From Aliiglaciecola sp. CAU 1673 (GTDB taxonomy: Bacteria > Pseudomonadota > Gammaproteobacteria > Enterobacterales > Alteromonadaceae): a stretch of DNA of 64,000 nt. The translations under genes were made by a program, and so were the position numbers. Below, one piece after another: positions 1 to 13,545 of this stretch; position 1 is the first letter of the stretch, and each line of letters opens with the position of its first letter. The notes under the pieces are model-generated. The model was not told the origin of the DNA, did not search any database, and was given only the letters and a program-made list of their open reading frames with translations. The stretch spans positions 186,001 through 250,000 of the forward strand of contig NZ_JARHUG010000005.1 in the NCBI RefSeq assembly GCF_029223185.1, given 5' to 3'.

Positions 1-674
1 TCCTGCTCAACTTCCTTAAGCAGTTGTTTTCCGGCCTTGGCAAATGCGTCTACGTCGAACGGCAGGTTGTAGTTAGCTGCGATAAAGGTGGCTGCTGGCG
101 ACAGGTCATTCAGGATGACGCGCCGAGCACCCCATTTAGGTACTAACTTACCTTGCTTCTTCCATTCGGTTTCCAATTCATGCCGATAGGATGATGGTGC
201 CGATCCGCACCACTGGGCAGCTACACCGGTCATGCCAGAGCCACCAAAGCCGTCGAGCACGATGTCACCTGGCTCCGTGTAATGCAGGATGGACGGGACG
301 ATCGCGAGGTGCGGCACCTTGGTGTGATACGAATGCGCCTTGTAAAGCTGATCTGTCTTGCCGACCGAGACGTCGATGGTCTGCGGCTCGCGGCTGTACT
401 TCACGCTGGGGTCGTAAGGCTTGCCGTAGTGACGCACGAAGTCTTCAAGGAAGGGGTTCGGGCATGCGGTGTAGTAAGGTGGGTCCGACATCGCGAGAAT
501 CGCCTCGTCTGTACCCTGCGGAAATCCCTCGATCTTGCGGAACGCCGGATCTTTCAGCTTCTCGGCCAGCAGCTTGGTGAAGTGCTCGCGTCGGGCTTGC
601 TCGCTGGGAAATGTCTGGCCAAGGCATTCGACCGGGCCTGTCTTGGCAGCGTGGTTTTGGAAAAGATCACTCAT
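1..674 (-). CDS. pglX: BREX-3 type DNA adenine methylase, copy 1 (partial, runs off left edge)
   Basis: This is the first 224 residues of a COG1743-type adenine-specific DNA methylase whose 3' end lies outside the window. The methylase would modify host DNA so that BREX can tell it from phage DNA. By eye, 69 of its first 75 residues match the methylase encoded just upstream (674-3469), including the DPPYYTACPNPF catalytic motif near residue 64. The SAM-binding motif reads FGGSG near residue 143 rather than FSGTG. Its ATG overlaps the TAA of the upstream paralogue (TAATG), so the two are probably translationally coupled. The frame is open throughout. After about residue 155 the two proteins diverge strongly. 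It could be a second specificity or a duplicate undergoing replacement; the missing C-terminus prevents a decision. Confidence 0.85.
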   Translation of the reverse strand, partial: MSDLFQNHAAKTGPVECLGQTFPSEQARREHFTKLLAEKLKDPAFRKIEGFPQGTDEAILAMSDPPYYTACPNPFLEDFVRHYGKPYDPSVKYSREPQTIDVSVGKTDQLYKAHSYHTKVPHLAIVPSILHYTEPGDIVLDGFGGSGMTGVAAQWCGSAPSSYRHELETEWKKQGKLVPKWGARRVILNDLSPAATFIAANYNLPFDVDAFAKAGKQLLKEVEQ

Positions 675-3469
675 TAAACTTCTTCCGTTCTGGTCAGCGC
701 GAGGTCATAGAGGGTGAGTAGCTTCTCGTCCTCTTGCAGCGCTTCATCGGGCACCTTCTTCGCGATATCGATGATCGTCTGGTAATCCTTGGCGGCCCAT
801 GCCGCGTGGAAGCCTGCACGAAGCGCCTCCAGTCGGAACTCCTTCAGACGCCGGCCAGTAAAGGCACGGTATTGGTCAAACTCCTTGAGCAGCGCCTTCT
901 CGCGCTTCTTCTCCAAGTCCTGTGCTTTGTTCGGGTCGGGCACGTACCAGCGATCCTTGGCCTTGGCCACCAGTGCAGGGCTGTTCTTGTCCAGCCCGCG
1001 AAGATCCTTGTAGTTGGTCGAGAGATAACTATGAATCTGGCTCGGAACCTCACCCGTGCCGTCGTACTCGATAAAGTTATCTTCGAGTAAGGCGGAAAGC
1101 TCTGGCTTTGATTCGTGCTTTTTCCAACCTGCACCCAACTGGCTGATGAAATCAGTATGAATCTCCTGATATGTTGAAGGTCGCCGCTTCAAGAAATCTG
1201 CCAACCAATCAATTGCGCTGCGCTCATCGGAAACGAACATTTCCATCTGAGGCGCGACTGCGACTTGCATCCTTTTCTTGTCATATTCAGAAACCTGATC
1301 AGGCAGAAAAATCATCCCATCCCGCTCAACAAAGCGCTGCAACAGGCCTGCCTGAAATTCATGCGTGGACATGGGAACCGGGACATTGTGCCGAATAAAC
1401 CACGCAACCATTCGATCGAAGATAATCCTCGGATCTCGCTCAGCTATGAACTCCAAACTGCCATTTCGTACCTTTACGGTTGGTAGATAACTCAAATGGG
1501 TTCGAACAAAGTCCCAAACTGAGTCCTCTGTCCCGCCGGAGGATGCAAATCTATTCTCAAGTCCACCATTAGGTTTATATGCAGAAATAACAAGATCTTG
1601 CTTGACTGCAATGGTTGAAATGTAGGCGTTGATACTTCCCTGCTTCTTATCGAGCGCCGAGACATTAGCAACAATGAACCCGGCCTCAGATATGGCAGTT
1701 TGAATATTATTCCAAACCGAAGCCTTCGTATTAGAGAACTCCACAGTCATCCAACGACCTGGCTTCAGAATGCGATAGGCCTCCTTGAAACAAGTCGTCA
1801 TTATTTGACGGTACTCGTTGGCACCTTTTCCCTGAATGTCGTTTTCAATGGCTTCTGTCTTATTGTTCGTGCGCACCTTTAGCCATGCTTCCCAGAGGAA
1901 GCTCATTTCCGAATAATTGATATTTGCGCCGAAAGGCGGATCAATAAAAACATAGTCCAAAGAGTTGGAATCAATATCCAAGACTGATGTCGATGACGTA
2001 CCAATCGCAACGTTCTCAATCTTTCCTACATTGACAAATGCCGAAGATGACCTCGAAGAAATCTGCGGAAATATAGGGACTTCGCTGTGAATTGAGGGGC
2101 AATAGAGTGTTCCCGTTCTTTCCTTTCCTACCCAGCCGCCCCGATTCTGTCCTTTAAGCGCAGCGAAATAATTCGACATAAGCGGCGCACAGAGTTGAGT
2201 TGACTTGTACATCATGGATGTGAACAAAAACTTCAGCTCTGGCGAATCGGCTCGACTCCAGCACGCCGCTAGCGTCCATAAATTTCTTTTGTAGAAGAAA
2301 TGGTGGACATGCGTAATCCCGTGGGAAAACTTAGGCTGCCTAGTGTTAAAACCGTCTGGCAACTCGTCTGTTGGAACCCAATAGGGAATATCTTTCTCTT
2401 CTATCTTTTCGAGTAACTCGAAATCGCCCAGGTCTGGTTTCTTGTTATACCGTCGCCCATTAAAAGTGTAATTAATTAGCACCGGGATCTGTTTCGCATG
2501 TTTGATGGTCTGACCGATTAATCGGTCGTGTTTCGTGATCCAGACTCGCTCAAGCGCTTTCTTATTTAGATTCTTTGAGCAATGAGGACAATCAAATCGC
2601 TCTCTGACCTCGCCAGCATCCGAGTCAACTGCTACATTCCAAAAGACTATCTCCCCTGCACACTCCGGGCAGTTAAAAACATCCGACCAAAGAGCGTAAT
2701 TAATCTGCCCCTTCGATATACCATCCGTATGAGAAGTCTCATAAAGCCAGGCGCACTCTGCTCTTACATCGTCATATATCTTCTTAACCTTTGCTTCGAA
2801 TGCAATTGGGTCTGACCCGGAATTGAAGTTGTGCGCAAGAAATGTTGCAGCTGGCGCGAGATCATTTAGGATCGCTTTGCGAGCGCCAATTTTTGAAAAT
2901 TTCTCCCACTTTGTTTCGCCCTGTTCGTTCCGGGTCTCTCCAAAAATATCCCCGTTACCATCTACCCTGTAGCCGAGGGATTGAACTGCGGATTGGTCAC
3001 CACACAGCTGGGCAGCAACCCCAGCCATCCCGGTTCCAGAGAAGCCATCAAATACGAGATCGCCAGGGTTTGTGTAATGAAGGATGTACCGCATTACAGC
3101 TTTTGGCGGAACCTTGGTGTGATAGCTGTGAGCGTTACATATCGGGTCATTTCGACCTTCGCTAACATCGGCTGCAAACGGCTCTTTGCTGTACGGAACA
3201 GACGAGTCATAAGGCTTGCCATAGTGCCGGACAAAGTCCCCGATAAACGGATTTGGACACGCCGTGTAGTACGGCGGATCAGATAGAGCCAGAATTGCCT
3301 CATCTGTACCCTGGGGAAAGCCTTCGATCTTCCGGAACGCAGGGTCCTTGAGTTTCTCAGCAAGCAGCTTCAGGTAGTGCTCGCGGCGAGCCTCATCGCT
3401 AGGGAAGGTTTGCCCGAGGCATTCAACCGGGCCGGATTTGGCCGCGTGGTTCTGGAAAAGATCACTCAT
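674..3469 (-). CDS. pglX: BREX-3 type DNA adenine methylase, copy 2 (COG1743, Zn-ribbon)
   Basis: The 931-residue protein has the layout of the large Zn-ribbon adenine methylases used as PglX in BREX type 3. DPPY lies at residues 64-67, a SAM-binding FSGTG at 143-147, a Zn ribbon with cysteines at about 267, 270, 294 and 297, and a second DPPF at 510-513. The expected role is N6-adenine methylation of the BREX recognition site for self-marking. It lies downstream of brxC on the same strand and is followed by a second methylase gene overlapping its stop. Base composition is uneven: the ends (674-1130 and 3000-3469) are GC-rich like brxC, while the middle (about 1500-2900) is clearly AT-rich, which suggests recombination of the central, probably specificity-determining, part. 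Methylase identity is firm; the BREX-3 assignment rests on the neighbours. Confidence 0.88.
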   Translation of the reverse strand: MSDLFQNHAAKSGPVECLGQTFPSDEARREHYLKLLAEKLKDPAFRKIEGFPQGTDEAILALSDPPYYTACPNPFIGDFVRHYGKPYDSSVPYSKEPFAADVSEGRNDPICNAHSYHTKVPPKAVMRYILHYTNPGDLVFDGFSGTGMAGVAAQLCGDQSAVQSLGYRVDGNGDIFGETRNEQGETKWEKFSKIGARKAILNDLAPAATFLAHNFNSGSDPIAFEAKVKKIYDDVRAECAWLYETSHTDGISKGQINYALWSDVFNCPECAGEIVFWNVAVDSDAGEVRERFDCPHCSKNLNKKALERVWITKHDRLIGQTIKHAKQIPVLINYTFNGRRYNKKPDLGDFELLEKIEEKDIPYWVPTDELPDGFNTRQPKFSHGITHVHHFFYKRNLWTLAACWSRADSPELKFLFTSMMYKSTQLCAPLMSNYFAALKGQNRGGWVGKERTGTLYCPSIHSEVPIFPQISSRSSSAFVNVGKIENVAIGTSSTSVLDIDSNSLDYVFIDPPFGANINYSEMSFLWEAWLKVRTNNKTEAIENDIQGKGANEYRQIMTTCFKEAYRILKPGRWMTVEFSNTKASVWNNIQTAISEAGFIVANVSALDKKQGSINAYISTIAVKQDLVISAYKPNGGLENRFASSGGTEDSVWDFVRTHLSYLPTVKVRNGSLEFIAERDPRIIFDRMVAWFIRHNVPVPMSTHEFQAGLLQRFVERDGMIFLPDQVSEYDKKRMQVAVAPQMEMFVSDERSAIDWLADFLKRRPSTYQEIHTDFISQLGAGWKKHESKPELSALLEDNFIEYDGTGEVPSQIHSYLSTNYKDLRGLDKNSPALVAKAKDRWYVPDPNKAQDLEKKREKALLKEFDQYRAFTGRRLKEFRLEALRAGFHAAWAAKDYQTIIDIAKKVPDEALQEDEKLLTLYDLALTRTEEV

Positions 3470-3539
3470 CAGTCGTTCCTCAAATTCTTGTTGTCATCGC
3501 CTTCTCGCCAGCGCCGACTCTTGGTTCTCATCCACCACG

Positions 3540-6500
3540 TCACTCGATCACGAAGCGCAGCTTGGTGGCATCCTTGCCCTTGCAGCGCTCGTTCATGAAG
3601 GTGTCGAAGCGCTTGCGCAGATCATCCGGCGTGGCCGGCGAGCCGCCTTGCAGCAGTGCCTGCTTGATCTCGTCGCCCTTGACCGCGATCTTCTCCAGCC
3701 CCGACAGCGCCTCCTGCACTGCATTGGTGAACTCGGTGGTCATCGGGTCCGGCAGCTTGCGTGAAGTCAGGAAGGCGTCGATCAGCTTCTTGGATGCAGG
3801 TGGCAACAGGCCCAGGCTGTCCTGCGTGAACGGGTCTTCCAGGTTCTCCAGCAGTGTCTGCTGCCAGTTGGCCAGCAGTTCATCCAGATCGTCATCCAGC
3901 TTGTGCAGGCGGTTGGCGGCCGGGATCAGCTCCAACTGCTCGGCAGAGGGGCGGAATTGGCAGTGCGGGCAGACGGCGGCCGTGACCAGGGTCGGCTCAT
4001 CCAGCGAGGAACAGCTCTTCAAGCCGTTGAGCGATTCCTCGAACGCGGTGAGCTGACTGGTGGGCATCAGCGACACGCCGGCCAACACACGCAGTGCCAG
4101 CAGGCGGTCATCCTTGCGCAGGGCGTTGCGGGTCTTGTCCTCGGCCACGCCCAGCCGCGCCTTGCTGTGGCTGGCGATGTAGGCGGTGATGTAGTCCTTC
4201 TTGAGCTGGTTGAGCGTCTGCCGGTATTCGGCGGCGTGCTCGGCTGTGCGGTCCTGGCTCAGTTTGTCCTGCAGGGCCTTGCGGGCTGCTTCGGCCTGCT
4301 TCACCCAGGGGTGCTCGGCAGGCAGCACCATTTCGGCCTGCGAGAGGTAGGACGCCGTACTGCCCAGTTCCACCACCAGTTCGAGAAGGCGTTCGACGGC
4401 GGCCAGGATCTCCAGATTCTTCTTCTGGCCGTCCAGGTCTTCCTGCGTGACACGCAGGTTCTTGAGCTTGCCGACGGTGTTGTACGGTGTCAGCGACTCG
4501 GTGAACTTTTTCAGCGAATCCAGCCGTGCGTGCCAGTCTTTGGCTTCTTCCTCGCGCAGCAGGTTCTGGCCCCAGAAGCCGAGCTTGCCTTGCTGCAGGT
4601 CGGAGCCAGCCTTGAGCACGCGCGGCACCAGTGCGCTGACTTTCTCCTGCAGTTTGATGACTGGCTCGGTATCGCCTTGGCTGGCCTTCTGGGCCAGGCC
4701 AGACGGCAGATCGAACAACTCGAACAGGGCACGCAGCACCGCGAGGTTGATCTCCTTGGGTGCCTCGACGTGCTTGAACTGCTTGAGCTCTTCCAGCGAA
4801 CGCTCTGCGAGCTGCACCAGCTTGCCGGAGTCGATCTTGTCGCCGGTGATCGACAGCACAATGTCGCCAGAGTAGACGAGGCCGCCGAGCACGGTGACCA
4901 ACAGGTCGGGCTCCAGCCGGTACTTGATAGGCGCGAAATACTCGACGTCCGATGTGCCCGACAGCAGTTCGCTGCGGTTGAGCACCTGGCCGTGGCCCTT
5001 GGCCTTGAGGCGGTTCAGCACTTCCTGCGCGTAGCGGGAATTGGCGGGGTCGACGCGGTCACCATCGAGCAGTTCCAGCGCATCGAGGATGGCAGCGGCA
5101 TCCTTGGTTCGGGTGCCGCCAGCCAGCGCGCGCAGCGCATTGCCCACCAGTTGCTTGCGGTTGGCTTCGGTGACCAGCACCGAGAAGGTGGGGTACTCGG
5201 GCGAGATGTCGGCAAAGCGCTGACCCAGTGCCAGGCCGGAGACGATGTTCACCACGTCGCGGAAGTTGATGCGCTCGTCCGGGCCCAGTCGCGCACGGTC
5301 GCGCAGGGACACGCCCTTGGACCAGTCCTGCAGCGTCTTGGTCTTGCCCTGGTAGGTGACCTCGAACGCGGTCATCTGCTTTTCCTGCAGCCACTTGCTC
5401 ATGGCGCGCAGCGAGTCCTGGGCCTTGGACAGGTAGATGGCTTTCGCGCCGCCGCTGGCGGTGGACGCCAGATCCAGTGCCGCCGCGTATTGCGACAGAT
5501 AGCGCTTGTAGTCCTCGTCCGGCGACTTCAGGCGGAAGAACACTTCGTCCGCCAGGTTGTTGTCGCTGAACTTCGGCTTGTCGAAGGGCTGGATAAAGTA
5601 GATGTAGAAGTCGCGCTCGGGCTGGGCCGTGGGGCGGTCATTGGGGGCGCCAAAGAACAGGTAGCCCATGCGCTCGACGCGGCGTTCCTGCCACTCGATC
5701 TGGTATTGCCAAATCTGGAAGCCGGGGTAACGCAGGTCGTCGCTGCACTCCATCAGTGCCTTGATGGCGCTGTAGTAGGCGCGGTCCAGCGCATCGTCGG
5801 ACAGGGCTTCGGCACGCTTTTCGATCTGCGCGTCGTAGTCGATGTCCTTCTTGAGGTCCAGGTAGTACTGCTCGGTGTCCGGCGCCTTGGATATGAACTG
5901 GCCGTTGACGGTCTTCAGCACTTCCCGCATGACGGTCTGGACCATCGACAGCAGGTTCTCGGCCGGATCGCCGGGCATGTCCTCCACGCCCGGCTGGAAC
6001 AGGCACAATGCGTCGCGCAGCTCGGCGGCCGTGGGGCCGATGGGCACATGGATGTCGCCGCCGGTGGTCAGACGGTGGACGGCCAACGCATTGATGACGC
6101 GCAGCGCCATGGCTTTGTAGGCCGGGCGCGTGAAGGCCTGCTGCACGCGGGACTCCAGCACTTCGGACACGCGCATGACCTCCTTGATGTTCGGGTCGGC
6201 GCGCAGGACCGAGTTGGCCTTGACGGTGTTCCAGAAGCTCTCGTAGCTGATGAACAGCGGTTTGTCGGCAGGCACCTCCTGGTCGAGGATGGCCAACATG
6301 GCGGCCTCGATGGTTTTGAGTGCGCCGCGCTTCTCGGTGAAGTGGATCTGCTCGAAGGTCTTCAGGTAGTCCGGGTGAACCGGGAACAGCCGCACGTACT
6401 CGTCCATGCGCTCGTTCATAGAGCCGTAAAACTTGGCGAACGGCGTGAGGTATTCGCGGATCTTGTTCTGCTGGTCAGCCGTCTTCTTGAGCAGGCGCGC

Positions 6501-7280
6501 GGAGACGACGAAGCTGACGTCCTGACGGTCGATCAGGATCTGGGTGAAGCGCTCGTTGACTCGCCGCATGCTGTCGGCGACGTGCTGGAAGCGCACGCTG
6601 TCGAAGATGGCTTCCTGCACACCAGCCACGAAGCGGAACTTCAGGTGCTTGGTGACTTCGCCGATCTGACGCAGGATCGCCAAGTCCTGCACCAGCTCGT
6701 GATCGCGGCGGGACTGCAGATATTCCAGGAACTCATCGACAACCAGAAGCAAGCCCTGGTCGGGGAATTTTTCCGCAAACGCAGCCATCATCTCTTCGAA
6801 CGAGTCCTTGTTGTTGAGCTCCTTGTCGGCGGTCGGGAAGGTGTAGTCGACGCCGAGCTTTTCCAGGAATCGCTCAAGCTGCAGGGTGATGATCTGGCGC
6901 AACGGCATCTGCAGGCCGCCCACCTCAATACGCAGGACCTTGAAACGACCAGCGATCGGGGCAACCGCCTCAGCAACTTTCGGATGACGTATCATAGATG
7001 CATAGGTGGCGTCTTCAGCCACCAGCGACAGCACCGACATCAAGTGCGATTTACCCGTGCCGTAGTTGCCGACGATCAGCACGCCCTTGTGATCGACCGA
7101 GTCCTCAAAACTGAGCTGGGGAACCATAAGCTTGGAGATCCGCTCGGCCATGTCGTCGGAGATGACATAGGTCGCGACGAGCTTCTTGGCCTCGTCCGGG
7201 TGCCCAGCATCGAGCAGCTGAATGACTGACTCGATCTGCTCGAACTGGATCAGATCTCCGTATTTCATGTTCTTTGCCAT
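3540..7280 (-). CDS. brxC: BREX ATP-binding protein BrxC
   Basis: This is a 1246-residue P-loop ATPase of the BrxC/PglY kind, the large cytoplasmic motor-like component found in all BREX types. The Walker A motif GNYGTGKS is at residues 71-78 and the Walker B stretch LLLVVDE at about 177-183. A single CPHC pair sits near the C-terminus. The size matches the roughly 1200-residue family norm. It lies between brxF (35 nt upstream) and the methylase pair (70 nt downstream) on the same strand, the order known for BREX type 3. The coding sequence is strongly GC-rich compared with the host core genes near 50%, pointing to acquisition from a high-GC donor. The long antisense frame here is a composition artefact. 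Confidence 0.9.
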   Translation of the reverse strand: MAKNMKYGDLIQFEQIESVIQLLDAGHPDEAKKLVATYVISDDMAERISKLMVPQLSFEDSVDHKGVLIVGNYGTGKSHLMSVLSLVAEDATYASMIRHPKVAEAVAPIAGRFKVLRIEVGGLQMPLRQIITLQLERFLEKLGVDYTFPTADKELNNKDSFEEMMAAFAEKFPDQGLLLVVDEFLEYLQSRRDHELVQDLAILRQIGEVTKHLKFRFVAGVQEAIFDSVRFQHVADSMRRVNERFTQILIDRQDVSFVVSARLLKKTADQQNKIREYLTPFAKFYGSMNERMDEYVRLFPVHPDYLKTFEQIHFTEKRGALKTIEAAMLAILDQEVPADKPLFISYESFWNTVKANSVLRADPNIKEVMRVSEVLESRVQQAFTRPAYKAMALRVINALAVHRLTTGGDIHVPIGPTAAELRDALCLFQPGVEDMPGDPAENLLSMVQTVMREVLKTVNGQFISKAPDTEQYYLDLKKDIDYDAQIEKRAEALSDDALDRAYYSAIKALMECSDDLRYPGFQIWQYQIEWQERRVERMGYLFFGAPNDRPTAQPERDFYIYFIQPFDKPKFSDNNLADEVFFRLKSPDEDYKRYLSQYAAALDLASTASGGAKAIYLSKAQDSLRAMSKWLQEKQMTAFEVTYQGKTKTLQDWSKGVSLRDRARLGPDERINFRDVVNIVSGLALGQRFADISPEYPTFSVLVTEANRKQLVGNALRALAGGTRTKDAAAILDALELLDGDRVDPANSRYAQEVLNRLKAKGHGQVLNRSELLSGTSDVEYFAPIKYRLEPDLLVTVLGGLVYSGDIVLSITGDKIDSGKLVQLAERSLEELKQFKHVEAPKEINLAVLRALFELFDLPSGLAQKASQGDTEPVIKLQEKVSALVPRVLKAGSDLQQGKLGFWGQNLLREEEAKDWHARLDSLKKFTESLTPYNTVGKLKNLRVTQEDLDGQKKNLEILAAVERLLELVVELGSTASYLSQAEMVLPAEHPWVKQAEAARKALQDKLSQDRTAEHAAEYRQTLNQLKKDYITAYIASHSKARLGVAEDKTRNALRKDDRLLALRVLAGVSLMPTSQLTAFEESLNGLKSCSSLDEPTLVTAAVCPHCQFRPSAEQLELIPAANRLHKLDDDLDELLANWQQTLLENLEDPFTQDSLGLLPPASKKLIDAFLTSRKLPDPMTTEFTNAVQEALSGLEKIAVKGDEIKQALLQGGSPATPDDLRKRFDTFMNERCKGKDATKLRFVIE

Positions 7281-8742: not shown

Positions 8743-8943
8743 TTATTTAACCCTTTCCAACAAATCGCCCACTTCACACTCAAACAAATCGCACAATTTA
8801 TCGATGGCTTCGAGATCGATGCGTTGGGCGGTTTCTTTGTAGAGCAGGGTGACGGTATTGCGGTTTAGGCCGGTTTCTCTGGCCACATCCATGATCTTCA
8901 TTTTCCGTTCGCCCATCAGTCGAGCTAAGTGACACCTTATCAC
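8743..8943 (-). CDS. Small XRE/Cro-type helix-turn-helix regulator
   Basis: A 66-residue protein beginning VIRCHLARLMGERKMKI (GTG start at 8943, with an AGAGG ribosome-binding site about 8 nt upstream), followed by a helix-turn-helix centred on ARETGLNRNTVTLLY. The reading frame continues further upstream, but that extension has no site and crosses the repeated operator region, so the GTG is preferred. The family resembles the short Cro-like regulators next to integrases and BREX loci. It is divergent from the excisionase-integrase operon and upstream of brxR on the same strand, so it may control either. The two long direct repeats in the divergent gap are probable targets. Confidence 0.75.
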   Translation of the reverse strand: MIRCHLARLMGERKMKIMDVARETGLNRNTVTLLYKETAQRIDLEAIDKLCDLFECEVGDLLERVK

Positions 8944-8960
8944 GCCGTTTAACCTCTTAA

Positions 8961-9040
8961 ATGACACAATGTCATCCAAAATGGCAAAAAGCCATTGACA
9001 AGTGCATTTTTTGATGCAAAATGTCATTCAGGATGGCAAA
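8961..9040. promoter_or_regulatory. Divergent control region with two long direct repeats
   Basis: Two 21-bp direct repeats lie at 8969-8989 and 9020-9040; 18 of 21 positions agree, and both start AATGTCAT and end ATGGCAAA. They are 51 bp apart, about five helical turns. Nested within the first copy is an AATGGC-AAAAA-GCCATT inverted repeat (8980-8996), and TGACA-CAA-TGTCA lies at 8962-8974. The region separates the small HTH gene from the excisionase gene and is probably a switch controlling both directions. Confidence 0.55.
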
Positions 9041-9097
9041 TTGGTTTACTGAATGAATATTTGCCGCCTAGCTTAACATGCAGTAGAGGTGAACGCG

Positions 9098-9337
9098 ATG
9101 CAAACCACGTCAAATTATGTCACGACCGCTGAGCTGGCCAAGCTCATCAAATACGACTGCCGCACGATTCGCGAGCAACTAAAAGACTCCGTGCTAATTG
9201 AAGGGATCCACTATATCCGGCCCTTTGGCGGGCGCAAGATCTTGTATGACTGGGAAGCTATCCAAAAGGATATGCGTAAGTTTTCTCAGCAGGCCATGGC
9301 CATTCCCATGAGTAAGGGAGGGCTTTGCCATGGGTAG
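9098..9337 (+). CDS. Excisionase-like HTH protein
   Basis: A 79-residue protein with an N-terminal winged helix-turn-helix of the MerR/excisionase kind (TTAELAKLIKYDCRTIREQL) followed by a short wing with a GGRKILYDW strand. Proteins of this size directly ahead of a tyrosine integrase act as recombination directionality factors. The ATG at 9098 has an AGAGGTG ribosome-binding site 7-8 nt upstream; a GTG three codons earlier would lie inside that site. The stop overlaps the integrase start by 8 nt, so the pair is coupled. Confidence 0.8.
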   Translation: MQTTSNYVTTAELAKLIKYDCRTIREQLKDSVLIEGIHYIRPFGGRKILYDWEAIQKDMRKFSQQAMAIPMSKGGLCHG

Positions 9338-10493
9338 TATCAATGCACGCAAGTACGGCAAGTTGTATCTGGACTTTCGTTACCGTAATCAGCGCTGCCG
9401 CGAGCAGACAGACTTGCGCGATACACCGGCTAACCGCAAGAAGTTGCAGGGGGTACTGGAGAAAATCGAGGCGGAGATTCTGCTGGGTAGCTTTGACTAT
9501 GCCCGTACTTTTCCCAACAGCAGTATGCTGGCCAAGGTGATTCCAGTGGATAAGGCCATTGCCGAGCAGGCAGCCAGCGCGCCGCTTTTTGCCGACTTTG
9601 CACAAACCTGGTTCACCGAGATGGAGGTGCAGTGGCGACGCAGCTACCGGGCAACGGTGTGCAATGTGGTGTTTAACCGCCTGGTGCCGTACTTTGGTGA
9701 GATGCGGGTAAATGACATCAGTAAGGCGCAGTTACTGCATTTTCGTACTGAGCTGGCAAAAACTCGCAAACAAAACGGTGAGGTGTTTTCCGCCACCCAC
9801 GTGAACCGGCATATGAAAATGCTGCGCATGATCTTAAATGAGGCGGCCGATCGCTATGATTTCACCACACCATACCGTGGCATCAAGCCCCTTAAGATCC
9901 CACGCACCGATATCCACCCGCTGACGCCGGAGGAAATCAGCCTGATCCTGGACAATGTGCGTGTGGATTTTCGCGACTATTTCACGGTGCGCATCTTCAC
10001 CGGTATGCGTACCGGCGAGATCGACGGGCTGAAATGGCGCTATGTGAATTTCACACGCCGGGTTATTTCGGTGCGCGAAACCTTGGTGTCCGGTCATGAG
10101 GAGTACACCAAAAACGATTTCTCCCAACGGGATATCCAAATGAGCGACGTGGTGTATGCCGCCATGCGGCGCATGCAGGCGCGCACCGGCCACCTTAGCT
10201 ATGTGTTTTGCCATGCCGACGGCCGGCCGCTGGATCATAACCAGGTTACCAAAACTATTTGGTATCCGCTGCTACGGCGCTTAGGCATTCGCAAGCGGGT
10301 GCCCTATCAAATGCGCCATACGGCGGCCACCTTGTGGCTGGCCAGCGGCGAGAATCCGGAGTGGATTGCCCAGCAGATGGGCCATGCCAATACCGAGATG
10401 TTGTTTCGCACCTACAGCCGCTACGTGCCCAACCTTACCCGGCAAGACGGCAGTGCCGCAGACAATCTGTTTAGCCAGATAGTCTCGGCTTAA
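9330..10493 (+). CDS. Phage-type tyrosine integrase
   Basis: The 387-residue integrase begins with an Arm-type DNA-binding domain (residues 1-60, DUF3596-like) and a SAM-like core-binding domain (about 85-180). The catalytic domain shows the first Arg in FTGMRTGEIDGLKW, HTAATLW preceded by Arg in MRHT, the GHANTEMLF box, and a Tyr in RTYSRY. The full RHRY-type set suggests activity. It follows the excisionase with an 8-nt overlap and precedes the HD and KfrA-like genes on the same strand. Because it is not beside the tRNA-Arg fragment at 27660, it probably belongs to a separate element nested in, or at the origin of, the larger island; no attachment site for it was found. Confidence 0.9.
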   Translation: MGSINARKYGKLYLDFRYRNQRCREQTDLRDTPANRKKLQGVLEKIEAEILLGSFDYARTFPNSSMLAKVIPVDKAIAEQAASAPLFADFAQTWFTEMEVQWRRSYRATVCNVVFNRLVPYFGEMRVNDISKAQLLHFRTELAKTRKQNGEVFSATHVNRHMKMLRMILNEAADRYDFTTPYRGIKPLKIPRTDIHPLTPEEISLILDNVRVDFRDYFTVRIFTGMRTGEIDGLKWRYVNFTRRVISVRETLVSGHEEYTKNDFSQRDIQMSDVVYAAMRRMQARTGHLSYVFCHADGRPLDHNQVTKTIWYPLLRRLGIRKRVPYQMRHTAATLWLASGENPEWIAQQMGHANTEMLFRTYSRYVPNLTRQDGSAADNLFSQIVSA

Positions 10494-10541
10494 CCCAACC
10501 CGTTTCCCCCCTTTCAACTCCAGCAGCATTAGGAGGCCGTT

Positions 10542-11471
10542 ATGAACGCCTTACCAATCGATTCCCTGCAACCTTTGCTTGTCGATGTGCCCAACTACCA
10601 CCGTTTTATGGGCCGTTACTTTCTAACCGGACTCGTCACCAAAGCCGACTCACAGGGTCAGCCCTGTTGGGCGTTGAACCTGTCTGACGGCTCCGGTGAC
10701 TTTAAGGTGTACTGCAATAATCCAGACCTGATGGCGCATCGTTTGCAGCCCCATTCGATGATTTTGGTGGAGGCTGCCCTTCGCCAAAACCAGGGTACGG
10801 CTTACTACCGCTGCAAGAACCTGCTACCCACCACCGATGAAACCACCCTGGGGATGGATCTGTCGGTGTTACCGCGCTCTTTCTGCTCCAATCCAGAAAC
10901 CTTTGATGCGCTAATAGTACTGGCCAGCAGGCTGCAGCATCCCTTGCTTCGCCGCTTCCTGCGCCAGGTGCTATTGCAACAATGGGTAGGCCTGCGCTTT
11001 TTACAATGCCCGGCCAGCCTGCGTCATCATCACGCCTATCGCGGTGGGCTGTTACAACATTCGGTGGAGATTGCCTGGGATGTGGCCGGTGTTCAGGAGC
11101 TTTCAACCCTGGAGCGGGATATCGCCGTAGTCGCAGCGCTTTTACATGATATTGGCAAAACCCTGACCTTGACCCCGGATATGACCCGCACGGCCATTGG
11201 CGAGTTGGTGGATCACAGTCAACTGACCCTGGAAATCTGCGCTGAACCGCTTCGAGCGCTGGAACAAGAAGCCCCCAAGATTGCCCATCAGCTGCGCCAT
11301 GCCTGGACCTGCTATTCGCCCAACGCCCGCTTTGGCTACAAGCCACAAACCCGTGTAGCGCGGCATGTGCAGCGGGCAGATAGACTTAGCGCCAAAACCC
11401 CAAGCAATGTGGCGAGCCTGCCGATTTTCGATGATGTCACCGACATCATGCGTGAACGCGCAGCCAACTAA
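10542..11471 (+). CDS. OB-fold plus HD-domain phosphohydrolase/nuclease (YhaM/TraI-like)
   Basis: This 309-residue protein pairs an N-terminal OB-fold-like region (about residues 20-105) with an HD domain. The HD signature is complete: an early His in the HHHAYRGGLLQHS stretch and ALLHDIGK around residue 200. That arrangement resembles the YhaM 3'-5' exoribonuclease and the HD proteins of conjugative elements. The AGGAGG ribosome-binding site is canonical. It lies 48 nt after the integrase and 33 nt ahead of the KfrA-like gene, so it is probably expressed with the mobility genes. Whether it acts on RNA, DNA or a nucleotide signal cannot be told. Confidence 0.75.
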   Translation: MNALPIDSLQPLLVDVPNYHRFMGRYFLTGLVTKADSQGQPCWALNLSDGSGDFKVYCNNPDLMAHRLQPHSMILVEAALRQNQGTAYYRCKNLLPTTDETTLGMDLSVLPRSFCSNPETFDALIVLASRLQHPLLRRFLRQVLLQQWVGLRFLQCPASLRHHHAYRGGLLQHSVEIAWDVAGVQELSTLERDIAVVAALLHDIGKTLTLTPDMTRTAIGELVDHSQLTLEICAEPLRALEQEAPKIAHQLRHAWTCYSPNARFGYKPQTRVARHVQRADRLSAKTPSNVASLPIFDDVTDIMRERAAN

Positions 11472-11504
11472 TTAAATTAATGCAATTAATCAAAGGAGCA
11501 GGCT

Positions 11505-12086
11505 ATGGCCCGACATCCTGATGTAGCGGAAAAAGCCATTATCCAAGCGGGATTAGAGCTGGAAGGGTTGGGCAAAACGCCAAACCCTGGCGCCATTCGT
11601 GCCCATCTTGGCTATCGCGGCGGGCTGCTACGCATCAAAGCCATCTGGGAGGCCTTCAATGCCAAGCGCCAACAGGAATTGCTGCCCAAAACACACCAGG
11701 AGTTAGGTTTTGATGCCCTACCCGACGACTACGCCGGGCAAGCCTCACAGCTTATGTCGCGTGTAAGCGAAGCCTTGGAGCAGTTGGCCATAGAGGCCTA
11801 CAGCAAAAGCCAGCAACTCTTCGAGAAGCGCATCAAGGCCATGGACAAGGCCCATCAGGAAAAGCTGAGCTACTTGCAGGAATGCGAGCAAGCAGCGGAT
11901 CAGTCCATCACCCGCCTGGAATCGGAATTGGCCGATACCCAGCAAGAGCTTCAGCAACTCGCCGACCAGAACGCCAAGCTGCTGATTGAAAACTCGGAAC
12001 TACGAGGCCGGCTTTCAGTATATGAAAACAGAAACCCCAAACACAAAACCGCGCCACAGCCCCAGGAGATAAAACAGAATGCATAG
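11505..12086 (+). CDS. KfrA-like DNA-binding coiled-coil protein
   Basis: A 193-residue protein. The first 65 residues look like the KfrA N-terminal DNA-binding domain found on plasmids (a helix-turn-helix-like run with GLGKTPNPGAIRAHLGY). Residues about 85-170 form a long glutamate/glutamine/leucine-rich coiled coil. The tail is polar. An AAAGGAG ribosome-binding site precedes the ATG. KfrA-type proteins aid plasmid or element maintenance and local repression. It overlaps the next gene by 8 nt. Confidence 0.7.
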   Translation: MARHPDVAEKAIIQAGLELEGLGKTPNPGAIRAHLGYRGGLLRIKAIWEAFNAKRQQELLPKTHQELGFDALPDDYAGQASQLMSRVSEALEQLAIEAYSKSQQLFEKRIKAMDKAHQEKLSYLQECEQAADQSITRLESELADTQQELQQLADQNAKLLIENSELRGRLSVYENRNPKHKTAPQPQEIKQNA

Positions 12087-12588
12087 CGATATTTGCGATT
12101 TTACGGCCCTGGCCGGCAAGACCTTGCTCAAGCAATTGGACAGGGAATTTCAGTACCAGATGGAGCTCACCGATGGCAATTGGGTGCTATGGTATGACAC
12201 CCACTTCAAGGGGCATTGCCTGGAGCCGGCCACCGATGTCAAAGCCCAAGCCATTTTGCAGTTCTTTGGTAGCTGTGCCTGCCCGTTTAGCATGCTGCGT
12301 TTGGGCCGTTCATTGTCGCCCCGCAACAACCAACACGGACCCATCCAATCCAATATGATGGCCATTCGCTACCTACTCAGCGGCTTTGAGTGCATCGCCA
12401 ACAACCTCTTTGACTACAAAATCAGTACCGGCATGAGAGCGTTTATGACCCAACTCGAATTTCGCCTCGCCGGCGAGCTGCTGATGACCTACCAAAAAGA
12501 ACTCGCCACCATGCAAATCTGCCCGGAGATACTGGCATTAGCAACCGGTGGCGTGTTGATGTCAGAAGATATGTTCAGTAGGCACTGA
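12079..12588 (+). CDS. Hypothetical protein of the integrase operon
   Basis: A 169-residue protein I do not recognise. It starts inside the last codons of the KfrA-like gene (8-nt overlap) and closes the excisionase-integrase-HD-KfrA run. It is predicted cytoplasmic, mostly helical, with an aromatic N-terminal part (WVLWYDTHF) and no signal peptide or clear membrane helix. Codon use matches its upstream neighbours, and the coupling supports a real gene with a role in the same mobility module. Confidence 0.65.
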   Translation: MHSDICDFTALAGKTLLKQLDREFQYQMELTDGNWVLWYDTHFKGHCLEPATDVKAQAILQFFGSCACPFSMLRLGRSLSPRNNQHGPIQSNMMAIRYLLSGFECIANNLFDYKISTGMRAFMTQLEFRLAGELLMTYQKELATMQICPEILALATGGVLMSEDMFSRH

Positions 12589-12798
12589 GCCATATCCAGA
12601 CCTTCAGGCGATCCCCATAAATGGTTCACACAAAAATTAATTTTTGAAAAGGATCATAGCTGGATCTAATTTCTACCGATCTCTTCAAAAAGATCCTGAA
12701 TAAAAGGGATCGCCATCTCACGAGCTAGTGAAAGTATTTGAGTGCTCCAAACTTTGCATCTACGCTGAGCTTAAACAGAACACTTGGAGAATATAAGC
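12589..12798. other. Intergenic region with a possible gene remnant
   Basis: No full gene is seen here. On the minus strand a short open stretch of about 33 codons (ending with a TAG at 12666-12668) reads like a protein C-terminus containing AREMAIPFIQDLFEE. It has no start codon with a ribosome-binding site. It may be the tail of a deleted gene, and it marks the border between the GC-balanced integrase operon and the AT-rich cargo to the right. Confidence 0.2.
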
Positions 12799-13545
12799 AT
12801 GTGTCTAACTGATGATTTTTTTAACGGGTATGAGGAGCGCTATAGAAAATGGAGCGAAGACGGTCTTTCTATTAGTGAAGCGTGTTCACGCCTGAGTCTC
12901 TGTGACACCACAACTTATCCTATTGCCACAGAAGTAGCAGAGTTCATCTACAGAAACTGGACACTCAGTGAAGTAGACCAATTACCCGACGAGATAAAAT
13001 CAATTTTATTTGAAATCCTTAAACCTTATAAAATAAAAAATAGCGACTACTTGGAATCGATTAATTCAACAGAAAACTTGTCAAGACCAATAATATTAGT
13101 TGAGGATATATCCACAATAGATCTGCTGGCTGATGCAGTATGCGAAGGGAATGACAAGGAAATTTATCAAAAATGTTTAAGCATACTATATTTAAAGGAC
13201 AGGCGTATTTTTGAAGCTGTAGCAAGAGAAATAACTAGCTCCTCTAGAGATAGAGTTTTCCTAGGCTATTGCGAGAAAGACATTTTAAACGGAAAAGATA
13301 GGCCAGCTGACGCCGAAAGTCGCGACCCAATTAAACTACTGATAGGAAAGCCACTCTACACATACGGAAAACTATCCAATCAGGATAAAATAAAAAATAT
13401 TGAGAAATTCTTTGATAGAGTTTTCGAGAAGGAAAATATTAGTTTTAATCAAACTTCTTTCTCTAACTCATTGCAAAAGAAGCTGGAAATAACAGGAAAA
13501 ATGACAAAAAAACAAGCACAGGAGTTACTGGAAGGGCTTCTGTAA
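12799..13545 (+). CDS. Hypothetical AT-rich cargo protein
   Basis: A 248-residue protein not recognised as any family. The ATG at 12799 has a GGAGA site 8 nt upstream; a TTG five codons earlier would overlap that site. It is acidic, mostly helical and soluble, with a lysine-rich C-terminus ending KKQAQELLEGLL. AT content is much higher than in the integrase operon, which marks it as a separate acquisition. It stands alone between that operon and a small membrane ORF on the other strand. A function in defence is possible from the location but unsupported by sequence. Confidence 0.6.
   Translation: MCLTDDFFNGYEERYRKWSEDGLSISEACSRLSLCDTTTYPIATEVAEFIYRNWTLSEVDQLPDEIKSILFEILKPYKIKNSDYLESINSTENLSRPIILVEDISTIDLLADAVCEGNDKEIYQKCLSILYLKDRRIFEAVAREITSSSRDRVFLGYCEKDILNGKDRPADAESRDPIKLLIGKPLYTYGKLSNQDKIKNIEKFFDRVFEKENISFNQTSFSNSLQKKLEITGKMTKKQAQELLEGLL

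What the first reader, a model, noticed from the sequence alone, without database searches (positions are those of the whole stretch)
1..3469. Tandem duplicated BREX-3 methylases with near-identical N-termini
Two COG1743-type methylases lie end to end with TAATG overlap. By eye 69 of the first 75 residues agree, then similarity falls sharply after about residue 155. BREX type 3 loci normally carry one PglX. A second copy could add a second recognition site, or be a stored alternative for switching specificity by recombination between the shared ends.
Basis: partly seen in the sequence, partly recalled or inferred. Interest (0 to 1): 0.75.

Follow-up and report, generated by a model that had tools for sequence, protein, structure and literature searches.

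The report
Phage-defence operon with two specificity methylases
A bacterial anti-phage operon (BREX type 3) carries two apparently intact DNA methylases with different recognition regions where most relatives carry one, so one defence machine may read two different DNA signatures.

Summary
Sequence left of the window shows both genes full length (A 931 aa, B 924 aa), overlapping by TAATG, agreeing at 69 of the first 75 residues and also sharing C-ends. The interpretation needs changing. A and B are not a recent tandem duplicate: their middles, with the target-recognition region, belong to two separate PglXI clades, and synonymous sites are saturated even in the shared N-end. Near-identical BREX-3 operons elsewhere carry a near-twin of A alone, or a clade relative of B alone. 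Across 30 single-copy loci the PglXI ends follow the BREX core (BrxC) and the middle does not, suggesting fixed docking ends around a swappable specificity module. Two PglXI in one locus are rare: 2 of 57 PglXI-bearing genomes, the window's included. The other case (G1267) again pairs an A-type with a B-type, with freshly homogenised ends. Best reading: two specificity subunits on one machine, giving two methylation/restriction motifs; inferred, since no methylome was available. Reversible switching is poorly supported (direct repeats only; longest identical N-end run 17 nt). A new variant of a known kind.

The parts
674..3469 (-). PglXI-A (BrxXI methyltransferase), 931 aa, A-type middle
   Evidence: dN/dS 0.053 against L016
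1..674 (-). PglXI-B, first 674 nt of a 924-aa gene that runs 2,101 nt beyond the left edge (L005:3900-6674); B-type middle
3245..3469 (-). A N-terminal module, residues 1-75, core-lineage type
450..674 (-). B N-terminal module, 69/75 identical to A in protein, 78% in DNA
2000..2809 (-). A residues 221-490: probable nested target-recognition insert with four conserved Cys (267, 270, 294, 297); lies between strand 198-202 and strand 504-509 (next to DPPF) in a low-confidence model
3029..3049 (-). A motif I (DGFSGTG, residues 141-147)
1931..1942 (-). A catalytic motif DPPF, residues 510-513
882..962 (-). C-terminal patch of A sharing exact runs of 36 and 34 nt with B (A nt 2508-2588)
3470..3539 (-). 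BrxC-to-A leader, most like that of two loci with a single B-type PglXI (67/74 L109, 59/75 L110)
3540..7280 (-). BrxC, 1246 aa
7315..7782 (-). BrxF, 155 aa
7773..8666 (-). WYL-domain regulator, 297 aa (BrxR-like by position, inference)
8743..9027 (-). HTH_26 (Cro/C1-type) regulator, 94 aa

Best explanation
The locus is a complete BREX type 3 operon (WYL regulator, BrxF, BrxC, PglXI-A, PglXI-B, a Schlafen/AlbA_2 protein, a SNF2-type BrxH helicase, PglZ, BrxA) with two apparently intact PglXI methyltransferase/specificity subunits of different recognition clades. Shown: both genes are full length and keep the recognised catalytic and zinc-finger residues; their middles are of different clades; a near-twin of A, and clade relatives of B, occur singly at the same position in operons with near-identical BrxC; the ends follow the core and the middle does not. 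Inferred: A and B are made from one mRNA, with B translationally coupled to A; each docks on the same BrxC/PglZ core through its conserved ends; each methylates its own non-palindromic adenine motif; and the core blocks incoming DNA that lacks either mark. The pair arose by bringing two existing specificity types into one locus; the BrxC-PglX leader suggests A was placed in front of an older B (order not settled).
For: Full-length PglXI matches and a complete type 3 gene set. Of 224 columns conserved in >=95% of 60 other PglXI, A departs at 7 and B at 1, none in DPPY(64-67), FxGxG(143-147), the four Cys or DPPF(510-513). A evolves under constraint, dN/dS 0.053 against L016. Middle tree: A in a 23-row clade (99*), B in a 26-row clade (100*); A+L016+B as one clade rejected, nominal p 7e-35. 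Single-copy equivalents: L016 (BrxC 99%, PglX 96% to A, recognition region 95%, no B); L110 (BrxC 98%, BrxH 96%, PglZ 95%) and L109 (BrxC 96%, PglZ 94%) with one B-type PglX each. Ends follow the core in 30 single-copy loci: BrxC against N1-75 rho 0.42 (0/1000 permutations), against C831-929 rho 0.56 (0/1000), against 241-490 rho 0.09 (142/1000). TAATG overlap with GGAAG 7 nt before the B start. PglX is named the sole specificity factor in a type 1 BREX (PMC11341690, passages).
Against: No methylome, expression data or known motif for any relative. In the type 1 BREX of L. casei Zhang, which has two methylases, only pglX methylates (PMC10164179, passage). The arrangement is rare (2 of 57 genomes, one being the window's), so it could be transient. 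The single-copy B-type genes in the same core lineage share B's clade but not its recognition region (331-490: L051/L110 33%, L076/L109 56%); the best match to that region (72%, L079) sits on a more distant core (BrxC 70%). L109's BrxH is broken into fragments, so that locus may not work. B's middle has no relative above 80% identity, so selection on B was not measured. Different recognition regions do not prove different motifs. A-L016 identity (91.8% nt) is close to BrxC identity (92.9%), which fits an old A in this lineage as well as an inserted one.
Confidence: 0.6

Rival explanations
1. Transient merodiploid: the pair is a by-product of allele replacement, caught before one copy is lost by recombination between the C-terminal direct repeats.
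For: Rarity, 2 of 57 genomes; very different PglXI in cores of near-identical BrxC; the 36- and 34-nt identical runs at the C-ends could loop out the body of B.
Against: Saturated synonymous sites between the N-ends (25/34 fourfold sites) show old separate histories but do not date the union; A is constrained; both copies intact.
Confidence: 0.16
2. One active methylase and one helper: only A or B methylates, and the other regulates or only senses.
For: L. casei Zhang precedent in type 1 BREX (PMC10164179 passage).
Against: Both copies keep the catalytic residues, and members of both clades stand alone as the only PglXI of complete loci.
Confidence: 0.12
3. Two-strand marking: A and B methylate opposite strands of one asymmetric site, or work as a heterodimer on one site.
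For: LlaJI uses two methylases for one asymmetric site (PMC12707154 passage); a complex employing two PglX monomers to scan both sides of the DNA was suggested in PMC11341690 (passage); both dual loci pair an A-type with a B-type.
Against: Single-PglX type 1 systems are described with asymmetric sites (PMC6326788, PMC9122589 passages); each clade occurs alone in complete loci; with 23 and 26 of 62 rows in the two clades an A+B pairing is not unlikely by chance.
Confidence: 0.08
4. Stored alternative for switching by recombination between the shared ends.
For: Conserved ends and mosaic alleles across the family; recent end homogenisation in G1267; phase variation is said to be common in pglX genes (PMC11341690 passage).
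Against: Direct repeats only, no inverted repeats of 20 nt or more in L005:3800-9600; longest N-end identity 17 nt; crossing over between direct repeats deletes one gene and cannot be reversed (inference).
Confidence: 0.04

Closest known systems
BREX type 3 (PglXI/BrxXI, BrxHII)
   Same: The six core genes; PglXI domain plan with nested Zn-finger recognition insert and C-terminal helical region (PMC12839542 section 26)
   Different: Two full-length PglXI of different clades, tandem and overlapping; of 34 other distinct complete loci, 31 have one full-length PglXI, 2 a split or internally shortened one and 1 (G1267) two
Type 1 BREX with a second methyltransferase (L. casei Zhang)
   Same: Two methylases in one BREX cassette (PMC10164179 passage)
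   Different: Type 1, not type 3; there the second enzyme is reported not to be needed for methylation. Its relation to PglX was not examined here
Type I restriction systems with several hsdS specificity genes (recalled, from no call)
   Same: One machine, more than one specificity unit, variable recognition part between conserved parts
   Different: Here specificity and catalysis are in one polypeptide; no inverted repeats found
Two-methylase systems for asymmetric sites (LlaJI; PMC12707154 passage)
   Same: Two methylases in one system
   Different: LlaJI restricts through McrB- and McrC-related proteins; no evidence here for a shared site
G1267 BREX-3 locus (L107/L108)
   Same: Also one A-type and one B-type PglXI in one BREX-3 locus with alike ends (91% over residues 1-75)
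   Different: The copies lie on either side of BrxC, and their N-ends are almost homogenised in DNA (6/39 fourfold differences)

Membership tests
BREX type 3 | BrxF P-loop protein | tested here: met
   PDLC02497, 161 bits
BREX type 3 | BrxC ATPase | tested here: met
   PDLC02482, 1849 bits, residues 5-1246
BREX type 3 | PglXI-type methylase | tested here: met
   PDLC02541, 1379 and 1286 bits; two copies instead of one
BREX type 3 | BrxHII SNF2-type helicase of ~940 aa | tested here: met
   937 aa, SNF2 and Helicase_C domains; best PADLOC model PDLC02500 is named BrxHI|BrxHII but described as BrxHI, 1452 bits, and the model described as BrxHII scores 290 bits; filed as BrxHII by the SNF2 class and length given in PMC12839542
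BREX type 3 | PglZ and BrxA | tested here: met
   PDLC02558 823 bits; PDLC02444 229 bits
BREX type 3 | Site-specific adenine methylation and phage exclusion | not testable with these tools
   needs methylome and plating tests
Recent in-place tandem duplication | The two copies are each other's closest relatives | tested here: not met
   Middle tree; one-clade test, nominal p 7e-35; saturated synonymous sites. In residues 1-75 alone A is B's nearest row (92%), but A's nearest are L038 and L026 (97%)
Phase-variable specificity cassette | Inverted repeats or dedicated invertase at the specificity genes | tested here: not met
   No inverted repeats of 20 nt or more in L005:3800-9600. The one recombinase met among the neighbours scanned with Pfam (operon genes, five ORFs at window 9089-13545) is a phage-type integrase; other genes were not scanned for invertases
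Decaying duplicate | Truncation, stops or lost catalytic residues in one copy | tested here: not met

The most novel reading that the evidence does not exclude
BREX-3 can run as a two-specificity machine. PglXI ends are lineage-matched docking modules and the middle is an exchangeable specificity cartridge, and some loci carry one cartridge of each of two ancient types that act in one mixed complex (for example reading two motifs, two strands or two half-sites at once), so the pair reads something neither reads alone.
Probability: 0.1. Interest if true: 0.8.

Novelty: new variant of a known kind. Interest (0 to 1): 0.5.

Why it matters
Type 3 is little studied: four spellings of its name were found in only 4 papers of the searched library, although PMC12839542, which writes 'Type-3 BREX', was not caught by them. 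A natural operon with two specificity subunits would show that one BREX core can serve two recognition motifs, and the end/middle split predicts where PglXI docks on its partners and where specificity can be exchanged. Both predictions can be tested in laboratory E. coli by methylome sequencing.

Tried and rejected
Rejected: (1) truncated or dead left copy; it is complete outside the window. (2) Recent duplication or recent gene conversion at the N-ends of A and B; saturated synonymous sites. The low-divergence C-terminal patch is shared by B with several alleles of both clades, so it may be an old exchange joint or a nucleotide or codon constraint; unresolved. (3) Invertible switch. (4) More dual loci: no match for A at E<=1e-50 in phage records; one locus, single-copy, from a viral-contig scan with B. 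In plasmid records one search found 11 records for B, two of them with two places (H6, H7). I opened H2 and H6: H2 (Roseomonas) is a single-copy BREX-3 locus, H6 (Aeromonas) has no annotation in that stretch and no PglXI match of 700 residues or more in one frame; the other nine, H7 included, were not opened.

Results against my reading or weak: the core lineage as one clade in the ends tree is only just not rejected (p 0.063). Groups for the one-clade tests were partly named after seeing a tree, so the p values are nominal. L051 and L076, B-type in the same core lineage, have N-ends only 75-82% identical to A or B, so end matching is a tendency, not a rule; their recognition regions are only 33% and 56% identical to B's, and the BrxH of L076's locus (L109) is broken. 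Physical linkage of ends to neighbouring genes could give part of the end/core correlation. The leader could be read in 10 other loci; one of them, L118, is B-type on a distant core (BrxC 73%) and has a short leader (43/75). The one-clade test for the G1267 pair did not finish and was not repeated. The structure model is weak (mean pLDDT 63.7, pTM 0.39) and was used only for the order of elements; no fold search was run. Limits on candidates scored per genome (2 or 4 in several searches) could hide a second copy, and many assemblies are fragmented.

Rows dropped: of the 36 complete loci, L047=L118 and L051=L110 are the same loci, leaving 34; the window's own loci, L108 (part of the G1267 locus) and L122 (same place as L023) were left out before that count. 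L034 (split PglXI) and L114 (one frame lacking about 110 residues, which that script did not count as full length) are the two kept in the 34 without a full-length copy; the L114 gene (809 aa, row L086_0) is among the 62 rows of the trees. Two exact duplicate proteins were dropped and one. 78 further fetched stretches did not show both BrxC and BrxH or PglZ, most being short.
Full report
Observation. The window is G000:C32:186001-250000. With 20 kb on the left both methylases are complete: A, window 674-3469 (-), 931 aa; B, L005:3900-6674 (-), 924 aa, of which 674 nt lie in the window. A and B overlap by TAATG, with GGAAG 7 nt before the B start. They agree at 69 of the first 75 residues, 57% overall, 27% over A residues 331-490, and 77-80% in the last ~100 columns.

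Locus. On one strand follow HTH_26, WYL, BrxF, BrxC, A, B, a 596-aa SLFN_AlbA_2/HATPase_c_4 protein, a 937-aa SNF2-type helicase, PglZ and BrxA. Gene gaps are 34 nt (BrxF-BrxC), 70 nt (BrxC-A) and 22 nt (B to the AlbA protein); 4-nt overlaps join the AlbA protein, helicase, PglZ and BrxA genes, so one transcript is likely (coordinates; inference). This is BREX type 3. PMC12839542 (section 26 read, other passages seen) describes the type 3 methylase as a Rossmann core with a ~250-residue nested recognition insert carrying a four-Cys zinc finger and a C-terminal trio of helical domains, and reports Schlafen RNases with a minimal histidine kinase and wHTH linked to BREX and BREX-related loci in at least 1017 taxa.

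Both copies look functional. Over 62 PglXI that span both ends (A, B and 60 others), 224 columns are conserved in at least 95% of the 60; A departs at 7 and B at 1, none in DPPY(64-67), FxGxG(143-147), the four Cys or DPPF(510-513); one A change (T149A) lies just after motif I. A against L016 has dN/dS 0.053. B's nearest relative in the middle is 80% identical, and selection on B was not measured. A low-confidence model of A (mean pLDDT 63.7, pTM 0.39) puts its best-modelled part (about residues 230-370) in an insert between strand 198-202 and strand 504-509, as the paper describes.

Not a recent duplicate. In a tree of A residues 76-660, A lies in a 23-row clade (support 99*) and B in a 26-row clade (100*); holding A, L016 and B together is rejected (nominal p 7e-35). 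Synonymous sites are saturated or nearly so in nearly every part, also in the N-end (25 of 34 fourfold sites differ). The exception is a patch at A nt 2508-2588 with exact runs of 36 and 34 nt; that patch also has low synonymous divergence between B and several alleles of either clade.

Each clade stands alone elsewhere. Loci whose BrxC is 92-99% identical to the window's carry very different single PglXI: L016 (Dokdonella MAG) 96% to A and without B; L017, L020, L021, L026, L027, L031, L033, L038 59-69% to A; L110 and L109 one B-type gene, 71% and 79% to B. L016 also keeps A's recognition region (95%), whereas L110 and L109 share only B's clade (33% and 56% in 331-490), and L109's BrxH is broken. 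For L016, L017, L026, L027, L031, L033, L038, L109 and L110 the BrxC, BrxH and PglZ genes, where whole, are 89-93% identical to the window's in DNA, so PglXI is a variable slot in a conserved operon. Accessory genes around the slot vary too.

Ends follow the core, the middle does not. Over 30 single-copy loci, BrxC identity correlates with PglXI residues 1-75 (rho 0.42, 0/1000 permutations) and 831-929 (rho 0.56, 0/1000), not with 241-490 (rho 0.09, 142/1000). PglZ (28 loci: 0.35, 0.51, 0.10) and BrxH (23 loci: 0.43, 0.49, -0.07) give the same pattern. The ends reject the B clade (nominal p 1e-6) and the middle rejects the core lineage (nominal p 8e-31). Even A and L016 differ in age along the gene: dS is 0.10-0.61 in 80-codon blocks up to residue 800 and 0.85-0.91 beyond. 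In G1025 two contigs share 1,252 nt at 93% from BrxC into PglX, then lose detectable DNA similarity, then match again at 77%. The simplest reading is a fixed docking frame with an exchangeable specificity part; linkage of the ends to neighbouring genes is a partial alternative.

How rare. PglXI hits at E<=1e-50 were found in 8 of 369, 2 of 295, 17 of 311, 22 of 210, 5 of 40, 1 of 1, 8 of 398 and 7 of 48 genomes, samples overlapping; 57 different genomes in all. Two, G000 (the window's own) and G1267, have two PglXI genes in one BREX locus. Several others have more than one PglXI far apart or on other contigs (for example G1025 with three). None of the 26 loci of the genome-contig scan shows two full-length PglXI, though several are cut by contig ends. 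Of 34 distinct loci spanning BrxC to BrxH or PglZ besides the window's, 31 have one full-length PglXI, 2 a split or shortened one, and 1 (G1267) two. The genus sample (5 genomes) shows BrxC only in G000, which fits horizontal arrival.

The second dual locus. G1267 has WYL, BrxF, PglXI (A-type), BrxC, a Mrr_cat protein, an AlbA_2 protein, PglXI (B-type), two further ORFs, BrxH and PglZ up to the contig end. Its two copies are each other's nearest in residues 1-75 (91%; next 81% and 78%) with 6 of 39 fourfold sites different and exact runs of 50, 46, 37, 35 and 29 nt, while 331-490 is 27% identical. So recombination between ends does occur in dual loci, recently there and long ago, if at all, in the window.

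Order of events. The BrxC-PglX leader could be read in 10 other loci. The window's matches 67/74 with L109 and 59/75 with L110, both single B-type, against 43-46 of 73-75 for seven loci with a 49-51 nt leader and a PglXI outside the B clade, and 43/75 for L118, a B-type locus with a distant core (lengths include the start codon). This suggests A was placed in front of an older B. Against it, A-L016 identity is about that of BrxC, so the order is not settled.

Mechanism. PglX is named the sole specificity factor of a type 1 BREX, and two changes in it broadened the methylated motif (PMC11341690 passages); four other genes are needed for methylation in Acinetobacter (PMC9122589 passages). Two intact PglXI of different recognition clades on one core therefore most likely give two motifs. 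The cautionary precedent is L. casei Zhang, where one of two BREX methylases is not needed for methylation (PMC10164179 passages). Switching is unlikely: the repeats found are direct (about 300 nt at 76% at each end), and crossing over at the C-ends would delete the body of B (inference).

Literature. Searches listed no paper whose title or abstract start describes two PglXI in a type 3 locus, and a search inside PMC12839542 for 'duplicat', 'two copies', 'tandem' and 'paralog' showed no passage on doubled PglXI. I read passages and one section only; no supplementary files. Passages of PMC9716671, PMC6326788, PMC12707154 and PMC9009780 were also seen. Goldfarb 2015 (PMC4337064) was not held; anything it says on pglX rearrangement was not checked.

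Noticed in passing
window 9330-10493 (+): Tyrosine integrase with arm-binding domain, divergent from the BREX operon, followed by an HD/TraI_2-like (10542-11471) and a KfrA_N-like gene (11505-12086); the BREX operon probably sits on a mobile island.
   Followed up: partly
L004:16087-17877: SLFN_AlbA_2 + HATPase_c_4 protein between PglXI-B and BrxH; a 93% relative follows a single PglXI in L017 and a 92% one (cut by the contig end) in L018, so it occurs without B.
   Followed up: partly
L020:4480-10005, L034:2494-8019, L037:5054-9996: Much the same accessory block (about 468, 714 and 447 aa ORFs) sits between BrxC and PglXI in three loci; function not examined.
   Followed up: no
L034:7955-13323: PglXI of Achromobacter pulmonis ANB-1 is split into pieces, the first and last about 2.6 kb apart.
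   Followed up: no
L109:5052-6185: In the G1070 locus with a single B-type PglXI, BrxH is reduced to fragments.
   Followed up: no
L102/L104 (G1213:C70): A PglXI remnant with both ends but without its middle and with the ends in different frames, a possible product of internal deletion.
   Followed up: partly
L119 and L084 (G1025 C88 and C1): Two short contigs of one genome share BrxC to early PglXI at 93% DNA identity and then diverge: two specificity types in near-identical surroundings.
   Followed up: partly
window 882-962: C-terminal PglXI patch (about codons 836-863) with unusually low synonymous divergence between several otherwise saturated alleles; exchange joint or nucleotide constraint.
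   Followed up: partly
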